Positions 5,706 through 23,803 of a stretch of 64,000 bases of DNA are shown here, in pieces. Made by a program: the position numbers and the translations under genes. Within the stretch, counting starts at the first letter, position 1; each line of letters starts with the position of its first letter. The DNA is from Syncephalis plumigaleata (taxonomy: Eukaryota; Zoopagomycota; Zoopagomycetes; Zoopagales; Piptocephalidaceae). The stretch lies in the NCBI GenBank assembly GCA_025201365.1, contig JAIXMF010000005.1, forward strand, positions 930,001 to 994,000, read 5' to 3'. The notes under the pieces were generated by a model. The model had not been told where the DNA came from and searched no databases. It saw only the letters and a program-made list of their open reading frames with translations.

Positions 5706-5778
5706 TGGAGATTCCGGGTATCGATCCCGGTACTTCTCGCATGCGAAGCGAGCGCTCTACCATTTGAGCTAAACCCCC
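5706..5778 (-). tRNA. tRNA-Ala (anticodon CGC)
   Basis: A full 73-nt cloverleaf is readable on the minus strand. The acceptor stem GGGGGTT pairs with AATCTCC (two G-U pairs) with discriminator A73; the D arm is GCTC/GAGC, the anticodon arm CTCGC-TTCGCAT-GCGAG and the T arm CCGGG-ATCGATA-CCCGG. The loop puts CGC at positions 34-36, which reads the GCG alanine codon. There is no intron and no encoded CCA. It stands alone between two protein genes. Confidence 0.95.
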
Positions 5779-6229
5779 ATCCTAAAAGGACAAATTTCTT
5801 ATGACATGATATAGCAAACATGAAAAATACTGCAATTTCCGAAAATTACGATTTTATATATAAACACTATACGTGATGCGAGCTGCCAAGCATACAATGA
5901 ACTAGTTGATCGAACGAATACGTCAGCTGACCAAGCATGCTGTATTATGTTCAGATTGCACTCATTCGCGTAATTCCACGTTACATTCCTTATTCCGGCA
6001 CATTTACTTTGCTGCGAATGCCGCCGTACTTGCGTAATAAAGGTAAAGAACATCATAATTTATCACTTATAGTCCATTTTAATTGTTTAATATCACCTAT
6101 ATTTATTTAGTAAATGCTACAGCAATGTCAAAAGAAAAAAATCACCTATTTATTTAGTAAATGATTGAATGTACTTGTAGATATACATATTGTACTATAT
6201 GCATATACTATATGCTGCTCTTGGCTTGT
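5779..6229. other. Intergenic, no gene seen
   Basis: AT-rich, with a near-duplicate of a short motif (TCACCTAT.TATTTAGTAAATG) at about 6092-6115 and 6142-6165. No coding signal on either strand. Confidence 0.5.
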
Positions 6230-6730
6230 TCACTCATCGAAATGGAAGGATTTCTTTATTCCTTTCCTTACGCTCCTGTCCTTTTGTCTCTTCCTCGAAA
6301 GCTTTTGAATAAACTCGTTTAGCATCTCTTCTTGCGTACTTTCCCTCTTGGCAGTTTTCTTCTCAATTCTAACAATGTAATCTTGAACCCAAGATTGCTC
6401 GGCTGTAGAATCACTACATATACTCTGGTTATTATTGTTATTGTTATCAGCAGAGGGTTCCATGTTGATATTGTCCTAAGGGAAGAGCAAGAGAAACGAA
6501 CGAACAAACGAAATGGAGTAATGAGTATGGAATAGAATGAAGTGGGGAATGGTTAAACTGTATGGTAGTTCTAGGGAAGTAGCACAGGCACCTTTGACTA
6601 ATTAAAATGACAGCGCACTGACCCTTAGCCACTTTTGTACTTCTTTACCGTATTTCTTTCTCGTGTTCTTTTTTGTGTTTCCATACGTTTCCTGAGTATA
6701 TGCATATTCAGTTTGCGCTGTATTACCTTG
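6230..6730 (-). CDS. Small basic protein, probably two exons, partial
   Basis: The downstream exon (6230 to about 6475) codes a poly-Asn stretch, an Ile/Val helix and a Lys/Arg-rich tail (KLSRKRQKDRSVRKGIKK) ending HFDE. An acceptor (CCCTTAG) just before it and a donor-like GTCAGT near 6620 allow fusion to an upstream exon reading KKYGKEVQKWLR, also strongly basic. YGKEVQ is the kind of string found in nucleolar rRNA-processing proteins such as Ebp2, but the rest does not match Ebp2 well enough to name it. I see no clear start codon upstream; the 5' end is unresolved. Confidence 0.35.
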
Positions 6731-7140
6731 TGCCTTCTACACGTTTGTACTCCCACTAGCTCACGATAGTAATTACTCATAGCATATATTCTACTCTACA
6801 CTACATAGTTATTCATACTATTGTGTACACTTTTGCTGCTTGTAAACTACGATTACTGCAGAGAAACACTTTCTTCCGTAGCACTTGATCTTGCCACGAT
6901 CTACTCTTGTCTAACTAGTTTAGTCGTTATTTCTTTCTGTACAACAAAGTCGCACACCCTGCTGTACTCATTGCCGTTGTATTTATCGTATTTCTATTCT
7001 ACAACTACACGCTATTTTATTCATTTATCTCGTCATAGTCATAGTAAGTGCTTTTATCCTTCGTCGTGCTAATAACCGTTATAGTAAGTATACTAACGAC
7101 TATATGCTATGTTGTAGGCACAGTTACACTTCTCGTAATC

Positions 7141-8151
7141 ATGGCTTGTGTTTATACTGTGCACCCTTCTATATTCGTAGGTCATAGCGCTCATAACCCC
7201 GCAAGCGTGCCACTCCGCACAATTGCATCGCCGGTTCAAACGAATTCGGCTGCAGCCGCTACAGTCTCCCGACAAACTTGCTGCGCGGAATACTTACTAG
7301 ACAGTATTGTTAGTGTAGTGAGCAAGCGACTACACCAACGGTTCTTCAATGCGATTGTATCGCTTTTCTATTGTATTAGCGGCAGTTATCAGCAAGCAGC
7401 CCTACAAGACTGTTGTGCCGAACATTTCCTATCAGCCATTCTTGATCCGATGAATAAGGTGTTATATGCAGGTGCACCATTTAAAAGCAATGAAACGAAG
7501 ACGCTGATGTTACGTTTTCACGATACCACGACTATGCCTCGTAACCGAGTAGCAAGACCACCGCATATTGCTCCTCCACCAATCCAGCGCACTCTTTACG
7601 TGATAGAGGAATCGCCACTCGAATCAGATAGCATCCAGCACTCGCTCAACTCGGTAGAGGCACTGCCACTCGAATCAGATAACGACCAGCACGCATCCAT
7701 GCTGCCAAGTACACCGGAAGAAGAGCTCATCTTTGTAATCGAGGACTACACGGATAAGGTAGCATCCAATCCGCGTAAACGACCATTAGAGGATGAAGCT
7801 GATCTCGCTACGAGCGACATGCCACGAACAAAGAAGGGTCGATTGCAAATCCCGGTCAATACGTGCCAATGGCCACGAACACGTAAACGCACAACCATAC
7901 GACGTCGTACGCAGCCCTCATTCAAACTGCCCGGCCTAGTACTCGTCTGCCCACCAATGAATGTAGACGATGACTATATGCTTAATACACCAACTACGCC
8001 AAATGATGCGCACTTTCCGATAGTGTCATTCTCTCTTACCCAAGAACTACCGTGGATGGCCACAGCCAAACAGGATTGGATCAAGCAGCACACGTTGTCG
8101 ATGCCTTCATTTGATTTGACGGAAGATGCTATGCTACTTGATACCTACTAA
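7141..8151 (+). CDS. Unknown protein with duplicated CCAE helix and basic nuclear-type segments
   Basis: Single open frame of 336 codons from the ATG at 7141 (MACVYTVHPS); the frame is open further upstream but that part codes a long hydrophobic run in what looks like leader DNA. Two related segments, TCCAEYLLDSIVSVV and DCCAEHFLSAILDPM, lie about 45 residues apart in the N-terminal third, so the ordered part seems built from an internal duplication. A second short duplication, ESPLESDSIQH and EALPLESDNDQH, follows. Basic clusters (RKRPLEDE; RTRKRTTIRRR) look like nuclear localisation signals. I know no family with this layout. The stop lies 128 bp before the satellite array. Confidence 0.65.
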   Translation: MACVYTVHPSIFVGHSAHNPASVPLRTIASPVQTNSAAAATVSRQTCCAEYLLDSIVSVVSKRLHQRFFNAIVSLFYCISGSYQQAALQDCCAEHFLSAILDPMNKVLYAGAPFKSNETKTLMLRFHDTTTMPRNRVARPPHIAPPPIQRTLYVIEESPLESDSIQHSLNSVEALPLESDNDQHASMLPSTPEEELIFVIEDYTDKVASNPRKRPLEDEADLATSDMPRTKKGRLQIPVNTCQWPRTRKRTTIRRRTQPSFKLPGLVLVCPPMNVDDDYMLNTPTTPNDAHFPIVSFSLTQELPWMATAKQDWIKQHTLSMPSFDLTEDAMLLDTY

Positions 8152-8268
8152 TCCAATTCAAGATCCATATACAACCACGCATCGAATGGAGTACTACCAC
8201 ATGGCTCTATGGACATTTACAATAGCAGCAATTCGAAATTGCTAAAAAACATCATCCTGTACCACTTG

Positions 8269-11200
8269 GTACCATTAGTAATCAGTGCTTCAGTAATCAG
8301 TGCTTCAGTAATCAGTGCTTCAGTAATCAGTAATCAGTAATCAGTGCTTCAGTGATCAGTGCTTCAGTAATCAGTAATCAGTGCTTCAGTAATCAGTGCT
8401 TCAGTAATCAGTAATCAGTAATCAGTAATCAGTAATCAGTAATCAGTGCTTCAGTAATCAGTATTCAGTGCTTCAGTAATCAGTAATCAGTATTCAGTGC
8501 TTCAGTAATCAGTGCTTCAGTAATCAGTAATCAGTAATCAGTGCTTCAGTATTCAGTGCTTCAGTAATCAGTAATCAGTAATCAGTAATCAGTGCTTCAG
8601 TAATCAGTAATCAGTAATCAGTGCTTCAGTGATCAGTGCTTCAGTAATCAGTAATCAGTGCTTCAGTATTCAGTGCTTCAGTGCTTCAGTAATCAGTGCT
8701 TCAGTAATCAGTGCTTCAGTAATCAGTATTCAGTGCTTCAGTAATCAGTATTCAGTGCTTCAGTAATCAGTATTCAGTGCTTCAGTAATCAGTATTCAGT
8801 GCTTCAGTAATCAGTGCTTCAGTAATCAGTATTCAGTGCTTCAGTAATCAGTAATCAGTGCTTCAGTAATCAGTGCTTCAGTGCTTCAGTGCTTCAGTAA
8901 TCAGTGCTTCAGTAATCAGTAATCAGTGCTTCAGTGATCAGTGCTTCAGTAATCAGTAATCAGTAATCAGTGCTTCAGTGATCAGTGCTTCAGTATTCAG
9001 TGCTTCAGTAATCAGTATTCAGTGCTTCAGTAATCAGTAATCAGTGCTTCAGTAATCAGTGCTTCAGTAATCAGTAATCAGTAATCAGTAATCAGTGCTT
9101 CAGTGATCAGTGCTTCAGTAATCAGTAATCAGTGCTTCAGTAATCAGTAATCAGTGCTTCAGTAATCAGTGCTTCAGTAATCAGTAATCAGTGCTTCAGT
9201 GCTTCAGTAATCAGTGCTTCAGTGCTTCAGTGCTTCAGTAATCAGTGCTTCAGTAATCAGTGCTTCAGTAATCAGTGCTTCAGTAATCAGTAATCAGTAA
9301 TCAGTGCTTCAGTGCTTCAGTGCTTCAGTGCTTCAGTAATCAGTGCTTCAGTAATCAGTAATCAGTAATCAGTGCTTCAGTAATCAGTAATCAGTGCTTC
9401 AGTATTCAGTGCTTCAGTAATCAGTGCTTCAGTAATCAGTGCTTCAGTATTCAGTGCTTCAGTAATCAGTGCTTCAGTAATCAGTGCTTCAGTAATCAGT
9501 AATCAGTGCTTCAGTGCTTCAGTAATCAGTGCTTCAGTAATCAGTGCTTCAGTAATCAGTAATCAGTATTCAGTAATCAGTGCTTCAGTAATCAGTATTC
9601 AGTGCTTCAGTAATCAGTATTCAGTGCTTCAGTAATCAGTGCTTCAGTAATCAGTGATCAGTGCTTCAGTATTCAGTAATCAGTGCTTCAGTAATCAGTA
9701 ATCAGTGCTTCAGTAATCAGTAATCAGTAATCAGTATTCAGTGCTTCAGTGATCAGTGCTTCAGTAATCAGTATTCAGTGCTTCAGTAATCAGTGCTTCA
9801 GTAATCAGTGCTTCAGTAATCAGTGCTTCAGTAATCAGTGCTTCAGTAATCAGTAATCAGTAATCAGTAATCAGTAATCAGTAATCAGTATTCAGTGCTT
9901 CAGTAATCAGTGCTTCAGTATTCAGTAATCAGTATTCAGTAATCAGTGCTTCAGTATTCAGTGCTTCAGTATTCAGTAATCAGTATTCAGTAATCAGTAT
10001 TCAGTAATCAGTGCTTCAGTAATCAGTGCTTCAGTAATCAGTATTCAGTGCTTCAGTAATCAGTAATCAGTAATCAGTGCTTCAGTGATCAGTGCTTCAG
10101 TAATCAGTAATCAGTGCTTCAGTATTCAGTGCTTCAGTGCTTCAGTAATCAGTGCTTCAGTAATCAGTGCTTCAGTAATCAGTATTCAGTGCTTCAGTAA
10201 TCAGTATTCAGTGCTTCAGTAATCAGTGCTTCAGTAATCAGTGATCAGTGCTTCAGTATTCAGTAATCAGTGCTTCAGTAATCAGTAATCAGTGCTTCAG
10301 TAATCAGTAATCAGTGCTTCAGTAATCAGTGCTTCAGTGCTTCAGTAATCAGTGCTTCAGTAATCAGTAATCAGTGCTTCAGTATTCAGTGCTTCAGTAA
10401 TCAGTAATCAGTAATCAGTAATCAGTATTCAGTGCTTCAGTGATCAGTGCTTCAGTAATCAGTATTCAGTGCTTCAGTAATCAGTGCTTCAGTAATCAGT
10501 GCTTCAGTAATCAGTGCTTCAGTATTCAGTGCTTCAGTAATCAGTAATCAGTGCTTCAGTAATCAGTAATCAGTGCTTCAGTAATCAGTAATCAGTGCTT
10601 CAGTATTCAGTAATCAGTAATCAGTAATCAGTAATCAGTATTTAGTGCTTCAGTGCTTCAGTAATCAGTGCTTCAGTATTCAGTGCTTCAGTATTCAGTA
10701 ATCAGTGCTTCAGTAATCAGTGCTTCAGTAATCAGTGCTTCAGTAATCAGTGCTTCAGTAATCAGTGCTTCAGTAATCAGTGCTTCAGTAATCAGTGCTT
10801 CAGTAATCAGTAATCAGTAATCAGTAATCAGTAATCAGTAATCAGTATTCAGTGCTTCAGTAATCAGTGCTTCAGTATTCAGTAATCAGTATTCAGTAAT
10901 CAGTGCTTCAGTATTCAGTGCTTCAGTAATCAGTAATCAGTATTCAGTAATCAGTATTCAGTAATCAGTGCTTCAGTAATCAGTAATCAGTATTCAGTGC
11001 TTCAGTATTCAGTGCTTCAGTAATCAGTGCTTCAGTATTCAGTGCTTCAGTAATCAGTATTCAGTAATCAGTGCTTCAGTAATCAGTGCTTCAGTAATCA
11101 GTGCTTCAGTAATCAGTAATCAGTATTCAGTAATCAGTGCTTCAGTAATCAGTGCTTCAGTAATCAGTAATCAGTGCTTCAGTAATCAGTAATCAGTGCT

Positions 11201-14088
11201 TCAGTAATCAGTAATCAGTGCTTCAGTAATCAGTGCTTCAGTATTCAGTGCTTCAGTATTCAGTAATCAGTGCTTCAGTAATCAGTGCTTCAGTAATCAG
11301 TGCTTCAGTAATCAGTGCTTCAGTAATCAGTGCTTCAGTAATCAGTGCTTCAGTAATCAGTGCTTCAGTAATCAGTAATCAGTAATCAGTAATCAGTAAT
11401 CAGTAATCAGTATTCAGTGCTTCAGTAATCAGTAATCAGTAATCAGTAATCAGTAATCAGTAATCAGTATTCAGTGCTTCAGTAATCAGTGCTTCAGTAA
11501 TCAGTAATCAGTAATCAGTAATCAGTGCTTCAGTAATCAGTGCTTCAGTATTCAGTGCTTCAGTAATCAGTATTCAGTAATCAGTGCTTCAGTAATCAGT
11601 ATTCAGTAATCAGTGCTTCAGTAATCAGTGCTTCAGTAATCAGTAATCAGTGCTTCAGTAATCAGTAATCAGTGCTTCAGTAATCAGTAATCAGTGCTTC
11701 AGTAATCAGTGCTTCAGTATTCAGTAATCAGTATTCAGTATTCAGTAATCAGTGCTTCAGTAATCAGTAATCAGTGCTTCAGTAATCAGTAATCAGTATT
11801 CAGTGCTTCAGTAATCAGTGCTTCAGTATTCAGTAATCAGTATTCAGTAATCAGTGCTTCAGTAATCAGTAATCAGTAATCAGTATTCAGTAATCAGTGC
11901 TTCAGTAATCAGTGCTTCAGTAATCAGTGCTTCAGTAATCAGTAATCAGTAATCAGTAATCAGTAATCAGTGCTTCAGTAATCAGTAATCAGTGCTTCAG
12001 TAATCAGTAATCAGTAATCAGTAATCAGTAATCAGTATTCAGTGCTTCAGTAATCAGTAATCAGTAATCAGTAATCAGTAATCAGTAATCAGTATTCAGT
12101 GCTTCAGTAATCAGTGCTTCAGTAATCAGTAATCAGTATTCAGTAATCAGTATTCAGTAATCAGTGCTTCAGTAATCAGTAATCAGTATTCAGTGCTTCA
12201 GTATTCAGTGCTTCAGTAATCAGTGCTTCAGTATTCAGTGCTTCAGTAATCAGTATTCAGTAATCAGTGCTTCAGTAATCAGTGCTTCAGTAATCAGTGC
12301 TTCAGTAATCAGTAATCAGTATTCAGTAATCAGTGCTTCAGTAATCAGTGCTTCAGTAATCAGTAATCAGTGCTTCAGTAATCAGTAATCAGTGCTTCAG
12401 TAATCAGTAATCAGTGCTTCAGTAATCAGTGCTTCAGTATTCAGTGCTTCAGTATTCAGTAATCAGTGCTTCAGTAATCAGTATTCAGTAATCAGTGCTT
12501 CAGTAATCAGTGCTTCAGTAATCAGTGCTTCAGTAATCAGTAATCAGTATTCAGTAATCAGTGCTTCAGTAATCAGTGCTTCAGTATTCAGTGCTTCAGT
12601 AATCAGTAATCAGTAATCAGTGCTTCAGTAATCAGTAATCAGTGCTTCAGTAATCAGTGCTTCAGTATTCAGTGCTTCAGTATTCAGTAATCAGTGCTTC
12701 AGTAATCAGTAATCAGTGCTTCAGTAATCAGTAATCAGTATTCAGTGCTTCAGTAATCAGTAATCAGTGCTTCAGTATTCAGTGCTTCAGTATTCAGTAA
12801 TCAGTAATCAGTAATCAGTGCTTCAGTAATCAGTAATCAGTGCTTCAGTAATCAGTAATCAGTGCTTCAGTATTCAGTAATCAGTGCTTCAGTATTCAGT
12901 AATCAGTATTCAGTGCTTCAGTAATCAGTAATCAGTAATCAGTAATCAGTGCTTCAGTAATCAGTAATCAGTATTCAGTGCTTCAGTATTCAGTGCTTCA
13001 GTAATCAGTGCTTCAGTATTCAGTGCTTCAGTAATCAGTATTCAGTAATCAGTGCTTCAGTAATCAGTGCTTCAGTAATCAGTGCTTCAGTAATCAGTAA
13101 TCAGTATTCAGTAATCAGTGCTTCAGTATTCAGTAATCAGTGCTTCAGTAATCAGTGCTTCAGTAATCAGTAATCAGTGCTTCAGTAATCAGTAATCAGT
13201 ATTCAGTGCTTCAGTAATCAGTAATCAGTGCTTCAGTATTCAGTGCTTCAGTATTCAGTATTCAGTAATCAGTAATCAGTGCTTCAGTATTCAGTAATCA
13301 GTGCTTCAGTAATCAGTAATCAGTGCTTCAGTAATCAGTAATCAGTGCTTCAGTAATTAGTAATCAGTGCTTCAGTAATCAGTGCTTCAGTATTCAGTAA
13401 TCAGTGCTTCAGTATTCAGTAATCAGTGCTTCAGTAATCAGTAATCAGTGCTTCAGTAATCAGTAATCAGTGCTTCAGTAATTAGTAATCAGTGCTTCAG
13501 TAATCAGTGCTTCAGTATTCAGTAATCAGTATTCAGTAATCAGTAATCAGTAATCAGTATTCAGTAATCAGTGCTTCAGTAATCAGTGCTTCAGTAATCA
13601 GTGCTTCAGTAATCAGTAATCAGTAATCAGTAATCAGTAATCAGTGCTTCAGTAATCAGTAATCAGTGCTTCAGTAATCAGTAATCAGTATTCAGTAATC
13701 AGTATTCAGTAATCAGTGCTTCAGTAATCAGTAATCAGTAATCAGTAATCAGTGCTTCAGTAATCAGTAATCAGTAATCAGTGCTTCAGTAATCAGTGCT
13801 TCAGTATTCAGTGCTTCAGTATTCAGTGCTTCAGTAATCAGTGCTTCAGTAATCAGTAATCAGTGCTTCAGTAATCAGTGCTTCAGTGCTTCAGTATTCA
13901 GTGCTTCAGTAATCAGTGCTTCAGTAATCAGTAATCAGTGCTTCAGTAATCAGTGCTTCAGTAATCAGTAATCAGTGCTTCAGTATTCAGTATTCAGTGC
14001 TTCAGTAATCAGTAATCAGTGCTTCAGTATTCAGTATTCAGTGCTTCAGTGCTTCAGTGATCAGTACCATTAGTATTCAGTATTCAGT
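8269..14088. repeat. 5.8-kb satellite of interleaved 7-bp and 8-bp CAGT words
   Basis: From 8280 to 14065 the DNA is an unbroken string of four short words, AATCAGT, ATTCAGT, GATCAGT (7 bp) and GCTTCAGT (8 bp), roughly 780 in all. Each ends in CAGT, and almost no other base is present: two AATTAGT (13355, 13480) and one ATTTAGT (about 10635) are the only variants I saw. The word order is irregular but long blocks recur. The 12-bp string GTACCATTAGTA borders the array on both sides (8269-8280 and 14064-14075), and degenerate units (ATTCAGT, ATTAGT) continue to about 14150. Mixing of 7 and 8 bp words shifts the frame constantly, so no long frame exists on either strand. The array sits between the 3' ends of two converging genes. 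Confidence 0.97.
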
Positions 14089-14281
14089 ATCTGGGTTATC
14101 GATCAGTTTTTGTATACAGGTTTATTAGTATTCAGTATTTTAGTATTTACGTTAGCATCTTCATGCTCACTATGGCAAATCTTTAGTACTCAACAATGGT
14201 AAAGTATCCTTTAATATTATATAATTATTTATTAATATTTAACTAATGTACTTAATTAATGTTTACGTAGATGATTAAAAA

Positions 14282-15326
14282 TTATTGCTTTAGCTTCTCA
14301 TCAATGATTGACTGCGTGAACGACCATAGTTTGTCTTGTAGTTCCTCGTTACACGCAAAACTACTCGGTGTGGAGCGTTTGCCGTATGGAATGAAAAACT
14401 GGCCGTTGTAGCCTTTCTCCTTAACCTCATTGGACGTTGCCGCGTAGAGCGAGGTTAGGGCACCATCTGCCGTGGACATGGCGAACACCCAGTAGAACAG
14501 TCGATTTCCTTGGTCGACAATCCATCCATGTGCATCGCGGAAGTTGCGACCGAGATCCGAATGGACAACACCAGGATGCAACGAGTTGATTAGCACCGTG
14601 GGTGCACCGTCCTCCTTAGCGACCTGTCTTGCCAGATAGCTTGCCGTCATAATGTTGGCCAGTTTCGACTGACCATAAGCCTTCATTGGACTGTAGCCCG
14701 TCTCCTCGTTGATGGACTTCAAATCGAGGTACACACCACTTTTATACGTCCATTGATGGGCGAGACTTGACGTGAACACGATACGTGCCGGATCATCGGT
14801 CGTGCCACTCTGACGAATGGTCGGCAATAAGCGCTGCGTGAACAGGGTAGGGCCAATATGATTAACGCCGAATTGCGATTCAATATGGTCATCGGTCTGC
14901 GTGTAGGGTAGAGCCATGACACCGGCATTATTGATAAGAATGTGAATGCGTGGTTCGGCAGCAAGCATTTCCTTCGCGGCCCGGTCGACTTGAGCCAGAT
15001 TATTCAGGTTTAGAGCTAGGAATTTGAGATCCGGCTGCGTGTTACCGCCAGATTTAGACGTCTTGATATCACTCTTGATGTTCTCGATAGCGGCGAGTGC
15101 ACGCTCCTGATTACGGCAAGCGACGTATACGCGACATCCTTGCTTCGCAAGTTGTAGAGCAATATGATAGCCGATACCCGTGTTAGCACCTGTGACTACA
15201 GCCACCTATTTGTCGAGTGTTAGTTAATTATATAAAGTATCAGCGTGTGTGCATATCATTGCTACATACCTTTCCCGTCAAACTTGGTATTTGCTTATTG
15301 CTGAATGACTTTCCAAACCAACCCAT
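14282..15326 (-). CDS. Short-chain dehydrogenase/reductase, retinol-dehydrogenase-like
   Basis: Predicted NADP(H)-dependent SDR of 326 residues in two exons (15270-15326 and 14282-15205; 64-nt intron with GTATGT donor and a CTAAC branch site). Exon 1 gives MGWFGKSFSNKQIPSLTGK, the usual lead into the Rossmann fold. Visible motifs are TGANTGIG (cofactor loop), ACRNQERA (the Arg suggests NADP preference), NNAGV, a catalytic Ser in FTSSLAHQ and YGQSK (catalytic Tyr and Lys), then HPGVV. The pattern is that of the retinol dehydrogenase 11-14/WWOX-like group common in fungi; the substrate cannot be told. The frame is clean. Its 3' end faces the satellite at a distance of about 190 bp. Confidence 0.9.
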
Positions 15327-23046: not shown

Positions 23047-23803
23047 ATGCAGCTTACTCGTGTCACCGTTCTATCCAGTGCCATCACTGGCTTGCTATTG
23101 GCTATTACCATCGGCTCGACCAGCGCTATACCGTGTACCGTTTGTCACCAAAAGCCAGTGCATAAATGCTCAGCACCGGTAACAGCGCCAGCACCACCTC
23201 CAGCACCACCGGTCGTTGAAATCCACGTGCCAGGTTATGGTGAAGCACCGGCACCAGGACCAGTTACTCCTAATGTAACTCCCTCGACACCCAACAATTC
23301 CGGCACTACTACTCCAAATACCAATACCAATACTACTACTCCGGATAGTAGTACTAATACAAACACCACGCCAAATACCAACACGAATACCACACCAAAT
23401 ACTAATACTAACACCATACCAAATACTAATACTAATACAAACACCACACCAAATACCAACACGAATACTACACCAAATACTAACACCACACCAATACCAA
23501 CACCAACACCACTCCCAACACGAATACAAACACCACTCCCAACACCAACACGACCCCACCCTCTAACAATTCTTCCTTTGATCAAGTAAATCCACCAAGC
23601 TCTAGTGGTCCACCTACTTCAGTAGAAGGTAATGGAGACCGCTTCTGGGGTATGAGCATGGGAGAAGGAGGCGAGGAGAATCGCGCATGGGAAAGATGGA
23701 GAAGGAGGCAGAGAATCGCGCATGGGGAACGAGCATGGGACAAGAAGGTCAAGAGAATCGCTTTTGGGGAACGAGTATGAGCGATGGCTCGGTTAAGAGC
23801 TAA
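23047..23803 (+). CDS. Secreted Asn/Thr-repeat surface protein
   Basis: MQLTRVTVLSSAITGLLLAI followed by TSAIPC is a good signal peptide. Next come a short Cys segment (IPCTVCHQKPVHKC), a Pro/Ala-rich linker and about ten PNTNTNTT-type repeats, likely a glycosylated stalk. Downstream, DNA repeats code ENRxWGTSMG-like units (23620-23790) ending in SDGSVKS and a stop at 23801. Repeat periodicity shows one base missing near 23488 (inside the Asn/Thr array) and one near 23690 (between ENRxW units), so the uninterrupted frame that ends at 23589 is probably too short. There is no GPI-type tail. Cell wall or extracellular role is inferred only from composition. Confidence 0.65.

What the first reader, a model, noticed from the sequence alone, without database searches (positions are those of the whole stretch)
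8269..14088. A 5.8-kb satellite written with two word lengths (7 and 8 bp) that share CAGT
About 780 words of AATCAGT, ATTCAGT, GATCAGT and GCTTCAGT run without a break. An ordinary satellite repeats one unit; here two lengths alternate in non-random strings, with only three point variants in 5.8 kb. Such low mutation together with such free word order means that the array is either very young or constantly rewritten by recombination or slippage. I know no named fungal satellite of this kind. It could be a silenced block, a replication or transcription barrier between converging genes, or a binding platform for a protein that recognises CAGT; these roles are guesses.
Basis: partly seen in the sequence, partly recalled or inferred. 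Interest (0 to 1): 0.9.

Follow-up and report, generated by a model that had tools for sequence, protein, structure and literature searches.

The report
Runaway repeat inside one element copy
In the assembly of a small fungus, a tiny tandem repeat carried by a multi-copy DNA element has grown in one copy into a 5.8-kb block of nearly 790 short words, which gives a before-and-after picture of how such repeat blocks are born.

Summary
788 words (394 AATCAGT, 270 GCTTCAGT, 110 ATTCAGT, 11 GATCAGT, 3 one-base variants) run unbroken from 8280 to 14065 in non-random order. The genome is Syncephalis plumigaleata; array patterns are essentially confined to this locus.

The key lies in the flanks. Both belong to a dispersed repeat of about 4 kb with an ORF, found in ten copies. 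In the nine other copies the array site holds only one to three degenerate ~10-bp units ending in CAGT. So this is a single-locus minisatellite that grew from a seed inside one element copy. It carries 0.05% point variants against 3.4-8.1% private change in its flanks: young, or constantly rewritten. Exact internal copies up to 367 bp, and a mutation carried through a 125-bp tandem duplication, indicate block duplication besides short slippage. Array strands fold worse than shuffles, so hairpins are an unlikely driver.

Closest known kind: satellites born from 3' tandem repeats of mobile elements (Ogre; PMC7004042). No function is indicated. The element's class is unresolved, and raw reads could not be checked.

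The parts
8280..14065 (+). Array of 788 words of 7 and 8 bp (AATCAGT, GCTTCAGT, ATTCAGT, GATCAGT and 3 variants)
   Evidence: Complete tokenisation of the stretch; TRF rows 8277-14090.
8269..8280 (+). Left border GTACCATTAGTA, read as a worn 10-bp seed unit
   Evidence: Same 12 bp at the right border; ordinary elsewhere (24 in the genome, 27 for the reversed control); sibling copies have 10-bp units here. Reading as worn unit is inference.
14064..14088 (+). Right border: GTACCATTAGTA (14064-14075) followed by ATTCAGT words to 14088
6400..14262 (+). Truncated copy of a ~4-kb dispersed repeat that contains the array
   Evidence: Left part 94-95% to nine other places, right part 81-85% to the same nine; ends from alignments with four copies.
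7048..8151 (+). ORF of the repeat (367 aa, no Pfam family); stop codon 128 bp before the array
   Evidence: protein hits only from the same species; dN/dS 0.34-0.83 in ten pairs of five copies.
13274..13530 (+). Adjacent tandem duplication of a 125-bp, 17-word block that carries AATTAGT in both copies
   Evidence: 2.06 copies; AATTAGT at 13355 and 13480.
10920..11286 (+). First member of the longest exact internal repeat (50 words, 367 bp)
12116..12482 (+). Second member of the longest exact internal repeat, offset 1,196 bp
14125..14139 (+). TTAGTATTCAGTATT, array-like patch in the right flank where sibling copies read differently
   Evidence: Only two places in the genome, here and 14070; sibling sequences. 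Copying from the array edge is inference.
14282..15205 (-). Converging short-chain dehydrogenase gene
   Evidence: PF00106; 100% to BDF22DRAFT_619020 of Syncephalis plumigaleata.

Best explanation
A young, single-locus minisatellite grown from a seed. A dispersed repeat of Syncephalis plumigaleata carries, just downstream of its ORF, a tiny tandem repeat of a ~10-bp unit ending in CAGT. In one truncated copy this seed changed into 7- and 8-bp words and grew to 788 of them, mainly by repeated tandem duplication of blocks of a few to several tens of words (unequal exchange or synthesis-dependent strand annealing between sister arrays), with short slippage as a second process; the mixed word order is the record of these events. 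It most likely has no function. Shown in the assembly: nine copies with seeds only, one with the array, the block copies, the scarcity of point variants. Inferred: the path from 10 to 7/8 bp, the exchange mechanism, the lack of function.
For: Both flanks belong to the same repeat in ten copies; nine of nine other copies have one to three ~10-bp units at the array site and no 7/8-bp array; the two-unit seed pattern has 7 genome matches, 7 in element copies, none in the window. 445 of 788 words lie in exact repeats of 16 or more words against a mean of 31 and maximum of 193 in 40 order-3 Markov strings; a 125-bp tandem duplication carries AATTAGT in both copies. In a toy simulation (12 runs per setting, 20 settings) steps up to 40 words come near the observed coverage and longest repeat, steps up to 10 words do not. 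0.05% variants in the array against 3.4% and 8.1% private change in the flanks.
Against: No reads, no second strain and no related genome could be compared, so growth is inferred from one allele. Gapped word-level self-alignment hardly beats its null (532 against at most 524 in 12 strings), so the blocks are not collinear over long stretches. The best simulation setting gives more adjacent pairs (median 5 against 1) and fewer words in short-period runs (0 against 80) than observed, so no single step size fits everything. The element's class and mobility are not established.
Confidence: 0.8

Rival explanations
1. Assembly product: a real but shorter or differently ordered array was inflated or scrambled by assembly or polishing.
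For: Array with exact internal repeats up to 367 bp; the assembly is in 383 contigs, many of them small; no reads are at hand.
Against: The array lies inside a 1.41-Mb contig with unique flanking gene sequence on the right. The word string is locally varied and its variants are regionally distributed (10 of 11 GATCAGT before 10,450), which a simple inflation by copying one read segment would not give.
Confidence: 0.1
2. Rolling-circle amplification: a small circle from the seed was amplified and put back as a long array in one step.
For: Exact copies lie at a distance more often than next to each other (15 distant and 1 adjacent pair of 16 or more words).
Against: Offsets of the long repeats vary from 125 to 1,981 bp without a constant period, and no strong higher-order unit is seen.
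Confidence: 0.06
3. Selected function: the array is kept as a binding platform for a protein that reads CAGT, or as a transcription or replication barrier between the converging genes.
For: All 788 words end in AGT and 785 in CAGT; the array lies between the stop codons of converging reading frames.
Against: Nine of nine sibling copies do without it; uniformity follows from recent duplication. On the - strand AATAAA signals lie at 14233 and 14126, before the array for the converging gene, so that gene need not run into it. No binding data.
Confidence: 0.05
4. The array is old and was lost or shrunk in the nine other copies.
For: The window copy is the most divergent of the five full copies compared (61 private left changes against 17-28), so it could be an early branch.
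Against: Nine independent losses to 10-bp units, none with 7/8-bp remnants, are less simple than one gain; the array has almost no point variants.
Confidence: 0.03

Closest known systems
Satellites from 3' UTR tandem repeats of Ogre LTR-retrotransposons, Lathyrus sativus (Vondrak et al., PMC7004042; twelve passages seen)
   Same: Short tandem arrays near the 3' end of a dispersed element, variable between copies, occasionally expanded to long arrays.
   Different: There many loci, longer units and a known retroelement; here one locus, words of 7 and 8 bp, and an element of unknown class in a fungus.
Tetris and TIR-220 satellite, Drosophila virilis (PMC4079207; abstract and outline seen)
   Same: Tandem repeats inside a non-autonomous element served as building blocks of kilobase arrays.
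   Different: 220-bp units in terminal inverted repeats, heterochromatin; here a ~10-bp seed downstream of an ORF.
Human minisatellite MSY1 (PMC2599865; abstract and outline seen)
   Same: One array built of several repeat types in blocks; change by gain and loss of units and by conversion.
   Different: Change was observed directly there, in steps of 1-3 units; here it is inferred, and blocks of tens of words are needed as well.
Short simple satellites with related units in Drosophila (e.g. the 7-bp family of D. virilis; recalled, only a search listing seen)
   Same: Very short related units in long arrays.
   Different: Those are megabase-scale heterochromatic satellites (recalled); this is a single 5.8-kb locus.

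Membership tests
Minisatellite (variant-repeat type) | Tandem array of short units (about 6-100 bp, recalled) at a single locus | tested here: met
   7/8-bp words, 5,786 bp; patterns confined to this locus save one stray match.
Minisatellite (variant-repeat type) | Several unit types interspersed along the array | tested here: met
   Four main words, non-random order.
Minisatellite (variant-repeat type) | Length polymorphism between individuals | not testable with these tools
   Only one assembly of this species is held; no relatives.
Satellite DNA | High copy number, long arrays at several places | tested here: not met
   One array in 32.6 Mb.
Element-born array of the Ogre type | Sibling copies carry a short tandem array at the same place | tested here: met
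   Nine of nine other copies, one to three ~10-bp units.
Element-born array of the Ogre type | Array lies downstream of the element's coding part | tested here: met
   128 bp after the ORF stop; whether it is transcribed as 3' UTR was not testable.
Element-born array of the Ogre type | Host is an LTR-retrotransposon | tested here: inconclusive
   No Pfam domain in the ORF and protein hits only in this species; the ends of the element were read in part only.
Telomeric repeat | Lies at a chromosome or contig end | tested here: not met
   938-944 kb on a contig of 1,413 kb.
Hairpin-forming expansion repeat | Strands fold better than shuffles | tested here: not met
   Six of six folds less stable than the shuffle mean, z +0.61 to +3.34 (three places, both strands).

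The most novel reading that the evidence does not exclude
The repeat tract downstream of this element's ORF is a built-in expansion-prone site, so that any copy can turn into a kilobase array. If the ORF is transcribed through it, this copy makes an mRNA with a 5.8-kb array in its 3' UTR: a natural fungal parallel to 3' UTR repeat-expansion alleles, made by a DNA that does not form hairpins.
Probability: 0.12. Interest if true: 0.6.

Novelty: new member of a known kind. Interest (0 to 1): 0.4.

Why it matters
It is a natural before-and-after experiment inside one genome: nine copies with the unexpanded seed and one with 788 words, in an early-diverging fungal lineage for which two searches of the held papers listed no report of such an array (listings only). 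The array is also a large expansion of DNA that folds worse than its shuffles, so it could test whether secondary structure is needed for expansion.

Tried and rejected
One-sided flank mutagenesis: in an alignment of nine copies (C1 dropped for its insertion) the right flank of the window copy had 13 private substitutions in 162 bp against 0-3 in the others, while the adjacent left 145 bp (ten copies) had 2 against 0-4. This looked like mutation spreading from the array. With the five copies read in full, the right flank still exceeds the left as a whole (13 of about 160 against 61 of 1,817, Fisher p = 0.007), but the far left end of the copy is as divergent (14, 13 and 7 private changes in the first three stretches of 131-160 columns). 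I therefore dropped one-sidedness; the low divergence of the middle may reflect ORF constraint or conversion.

Hairpin-driven expansion: not supported.

Coding array: the longest stop-free run is 83 codons, stops recur in all six frames. Rejected.

Flanking 12-bp repeat as target-site duplication of an inserted array: sibling copies hold related 10-bp units at the same place. Rejected as less simple.

Clean higher-order repeat: gapped self-alignment hardly beats its null. Rejected.

tRNA-gene targeting of the element: a tRNA lies at 5706-5778(-), but ARAGORN found none in eight loci around five other copies (C135, C87, C223, C201, C351) nor in four neighbouring 10-kb loci. The surroundings of four copies were not searched. 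Not supported.

Other arrays of the kind: TRF on nine 10-kb loci of this genome (90 kb) showed none; this is a small sample.

Paper searches gave comparators but no report of this array by title or abstract.
Full report
What is there. From 8280 to 14065 the window reads as 788 words without remainder: AATCAGT 394, GCTTCAGT 270, ATTCAGT 110, GATCAGT 11, AATTAGT 2, ATTTAGT 1. The order is not random: GCTTCAGT is rarely doubled (15 against 92.5 expected) and ten of eleven GATCAGT are followed by GCTTCAGT, the eleventh being the last word. Ten of eleven GATCAGT lie before 10,450, so the array differs along its length. It has 36.7% G+C, no CpG and no long open frame.

Where it is. The converging gene at 14282-15205(-) is a short-chain dehydrogenase, 100% identical to BDF22DRAFT_619020 of Syncephalis plumigaleata on a contig of 1,413,401 bp, the length of contig C329 that holds the window. 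Of 150 matches of a looser pattern 148 lie in the window; the other two are three-unit ATTCAGT tracts.

The host element. The left flank (6900-8268) matches nine other places at 94-95% over nearly its whole length (92-95% for 7700-8268). The right flank (about 14096-14265) matches the same nine places at 81-85%. In eight of the nine, the two aligned parts are 8 to 31 bp apart; in C1 an insertion of about 270 bp separates them further. So the array sits inside one copy of a dispersed repeat with ten copies found; the tool calls its counts lower bounds. No two of the copies are identical in the stretches compared (at most 98.6% left, 96.9% right). In C135 and C223 the repeat aligns over about 4 kb and borders tandem repeats of 81-83 bp, on the left in C135 and on the right in C223. 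The window copy is truncated to about 6400-14262. The repeat carries an ORF (7048-8151) with two protein hits, both from this species, in a search that reaches only relatives sharing short exact words, and no Pfam family. dN/dS is 0.34-0.83 in ten pairs of the five copies read in full, so the ORF is probably real. The class of the element is unresolved.

The seed. At the array site nine of nine other copies read one to three degenerate units of about 10 bp: one in C223 and C201, two in C135, C68 and C87 (there one unit reads TTTAGT), three in C1, C351, C356 and C364. The pattern ATTCAGTAYYATTCAGTA occurs seven times in the genome, all in C1, C351, C356 and C364 at the element, none in the window. 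The window copy keeps related units at its borders: GTACCATTAGTA at 8269-8280 and 14064-14075, a 12-mer that is ordinary elsewhere (24 in the genome, 27 for its reversed control). The simplest history is that the seed unit shortened in this copy and then expanded; the path from 10 to 7 and 8 bp is inferred.

How it grew. 445 of 788 words lie in exact repeats of at least 16 words, against a mean of 31 and a maximum of 193 in 40 order-3 Markov strings (for 12 words 486 against 255 and 406, for 20 words 330 against 3 and 44). The longest is 50 words (367 bp) at 10920 and 12116; others have offsets from 125 to 1,981 bp. AATTAGT was carried through an adjacent 125-bp tandem duplication at 13274. 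In a toy simulation with 20 settings of 12 runs, steps of at most 2, 4 or 10 words come near the observed values in no setting, while steps up to 40 words with some word change come near the coverage (447.5 against 445 words) and less well the longest repeat (37.5 against 50); the same setting gives too many adjacent pairs (5 against 1) and no words in short-period runs (0 against 80), so short slippage is probably added. Gapped alignment of the word string hardly beats its null (532 against at most 524), so there is no clean higher-order unit. I read this as many tandem block duplications later cut up by further exchange. Six of six folds of array pieces are less stable than the shuffle mean, so secondary structure is an unlikely driver.

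How old. Among the five full copies (of ten) the window copy has 61 private changes in 1,817 left columns and 13 in 160 right columns. The array has three variant bases in 5,786, probably two events. Point change in the array is thus some 65 to 157 times rarer than in its flanks: the array is much younger than the copy that carries it, or turnover keeps erasing mutations. The word classes themselves differ by one or two changes and must be earlier changes that spread, so the contrast holds for later mutations only. One change beside the array may be copied from it: TTAGTATTCAGTATT occurs in the genome only at 14070 and 14125 (the reversed control once), the second place reading differently in the sibling copies.

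Rivals. An assembly product cannot be excluded without reads. Rolling-circle birth is disfavoured by the varied offsets. A function is not indicated: nine of nine siblings lack the array, and signals for ending the converging gene lie before it. The + strand shows none of the three poly(A)-like words sought between ORF stop and array and one, ATTAAA, at 14274, so transcription through the array is possible but untested.

Known kinds. Closest is the birth of satellites from tandem repeats in the 3' UTR of Ogre retrotransposons, which occasionally expand (PMC7004042, passages), then Tetris of Drosophila virilis (PMC4079207, abstract and outline). At least 23% of human minisatellites and satellites are reported to derive from mobile elements (PMC3389668, abstract and outline). 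Several repeat types in blocks are known from human MSY1 (PMC2599865, abstract and outline). Two searches with the genus or its phylum, with genome and with satellite or tandem-repeat terms, listed one and five papers, none reporting such an array by title or abstract start.

Verdict. Real in the assembly and well explained as an element-born minisatellite, a new member of a known kind. What stands out is the one-against-nine comparison and the contrast between array and flank. Reads across the locus are the decisive test.

Noticed in passing
996-1029: A small tandem repeat of ATTAGTATT that starts with ACCATTAGTATT, the same 12 bp as the right border of the array (14066-14077), about 7 kb away. 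May be chance.
   Followed up: partly
6144-6195: A short stretch 83-86% like the far right end of the element in C135 and C223, lying 0.2 kb to the left of the truncated window copy.
   Followed up: partly
L023:3392-4358 (C223) and L035:1711-3211 (C135): Tandem repeats of 81-83 bp border the element, with longer periods of 326 and 407 bp in C223.
   Followed up: partly
L031 (C1:1419200-1420200), about 328-594: An insertion of about 270 bp in the right part of the C1 element copy, absent from the others compared.
   Followed up: no
5706-5778: tRNA gene on the - strand, 0.6 kb from the element copy; none near five other copies.
   Followed up: yes
23047-23589: ORF with a signal-peptide-like start and imperfect Thr/Asn/Pro-rich tandem repeats (TRF rows 23345-23553); looks like a secreted repeat protein (my inference).
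   Followed up: no
L026 (C46) and L027 (C29): A 68% relative of the dehydrogenase gene is found with the same score on a 727-kb and a 35-kb contig, as if some small contigs were duplicates or second haplotypes of larger ones.
   Followed up: no
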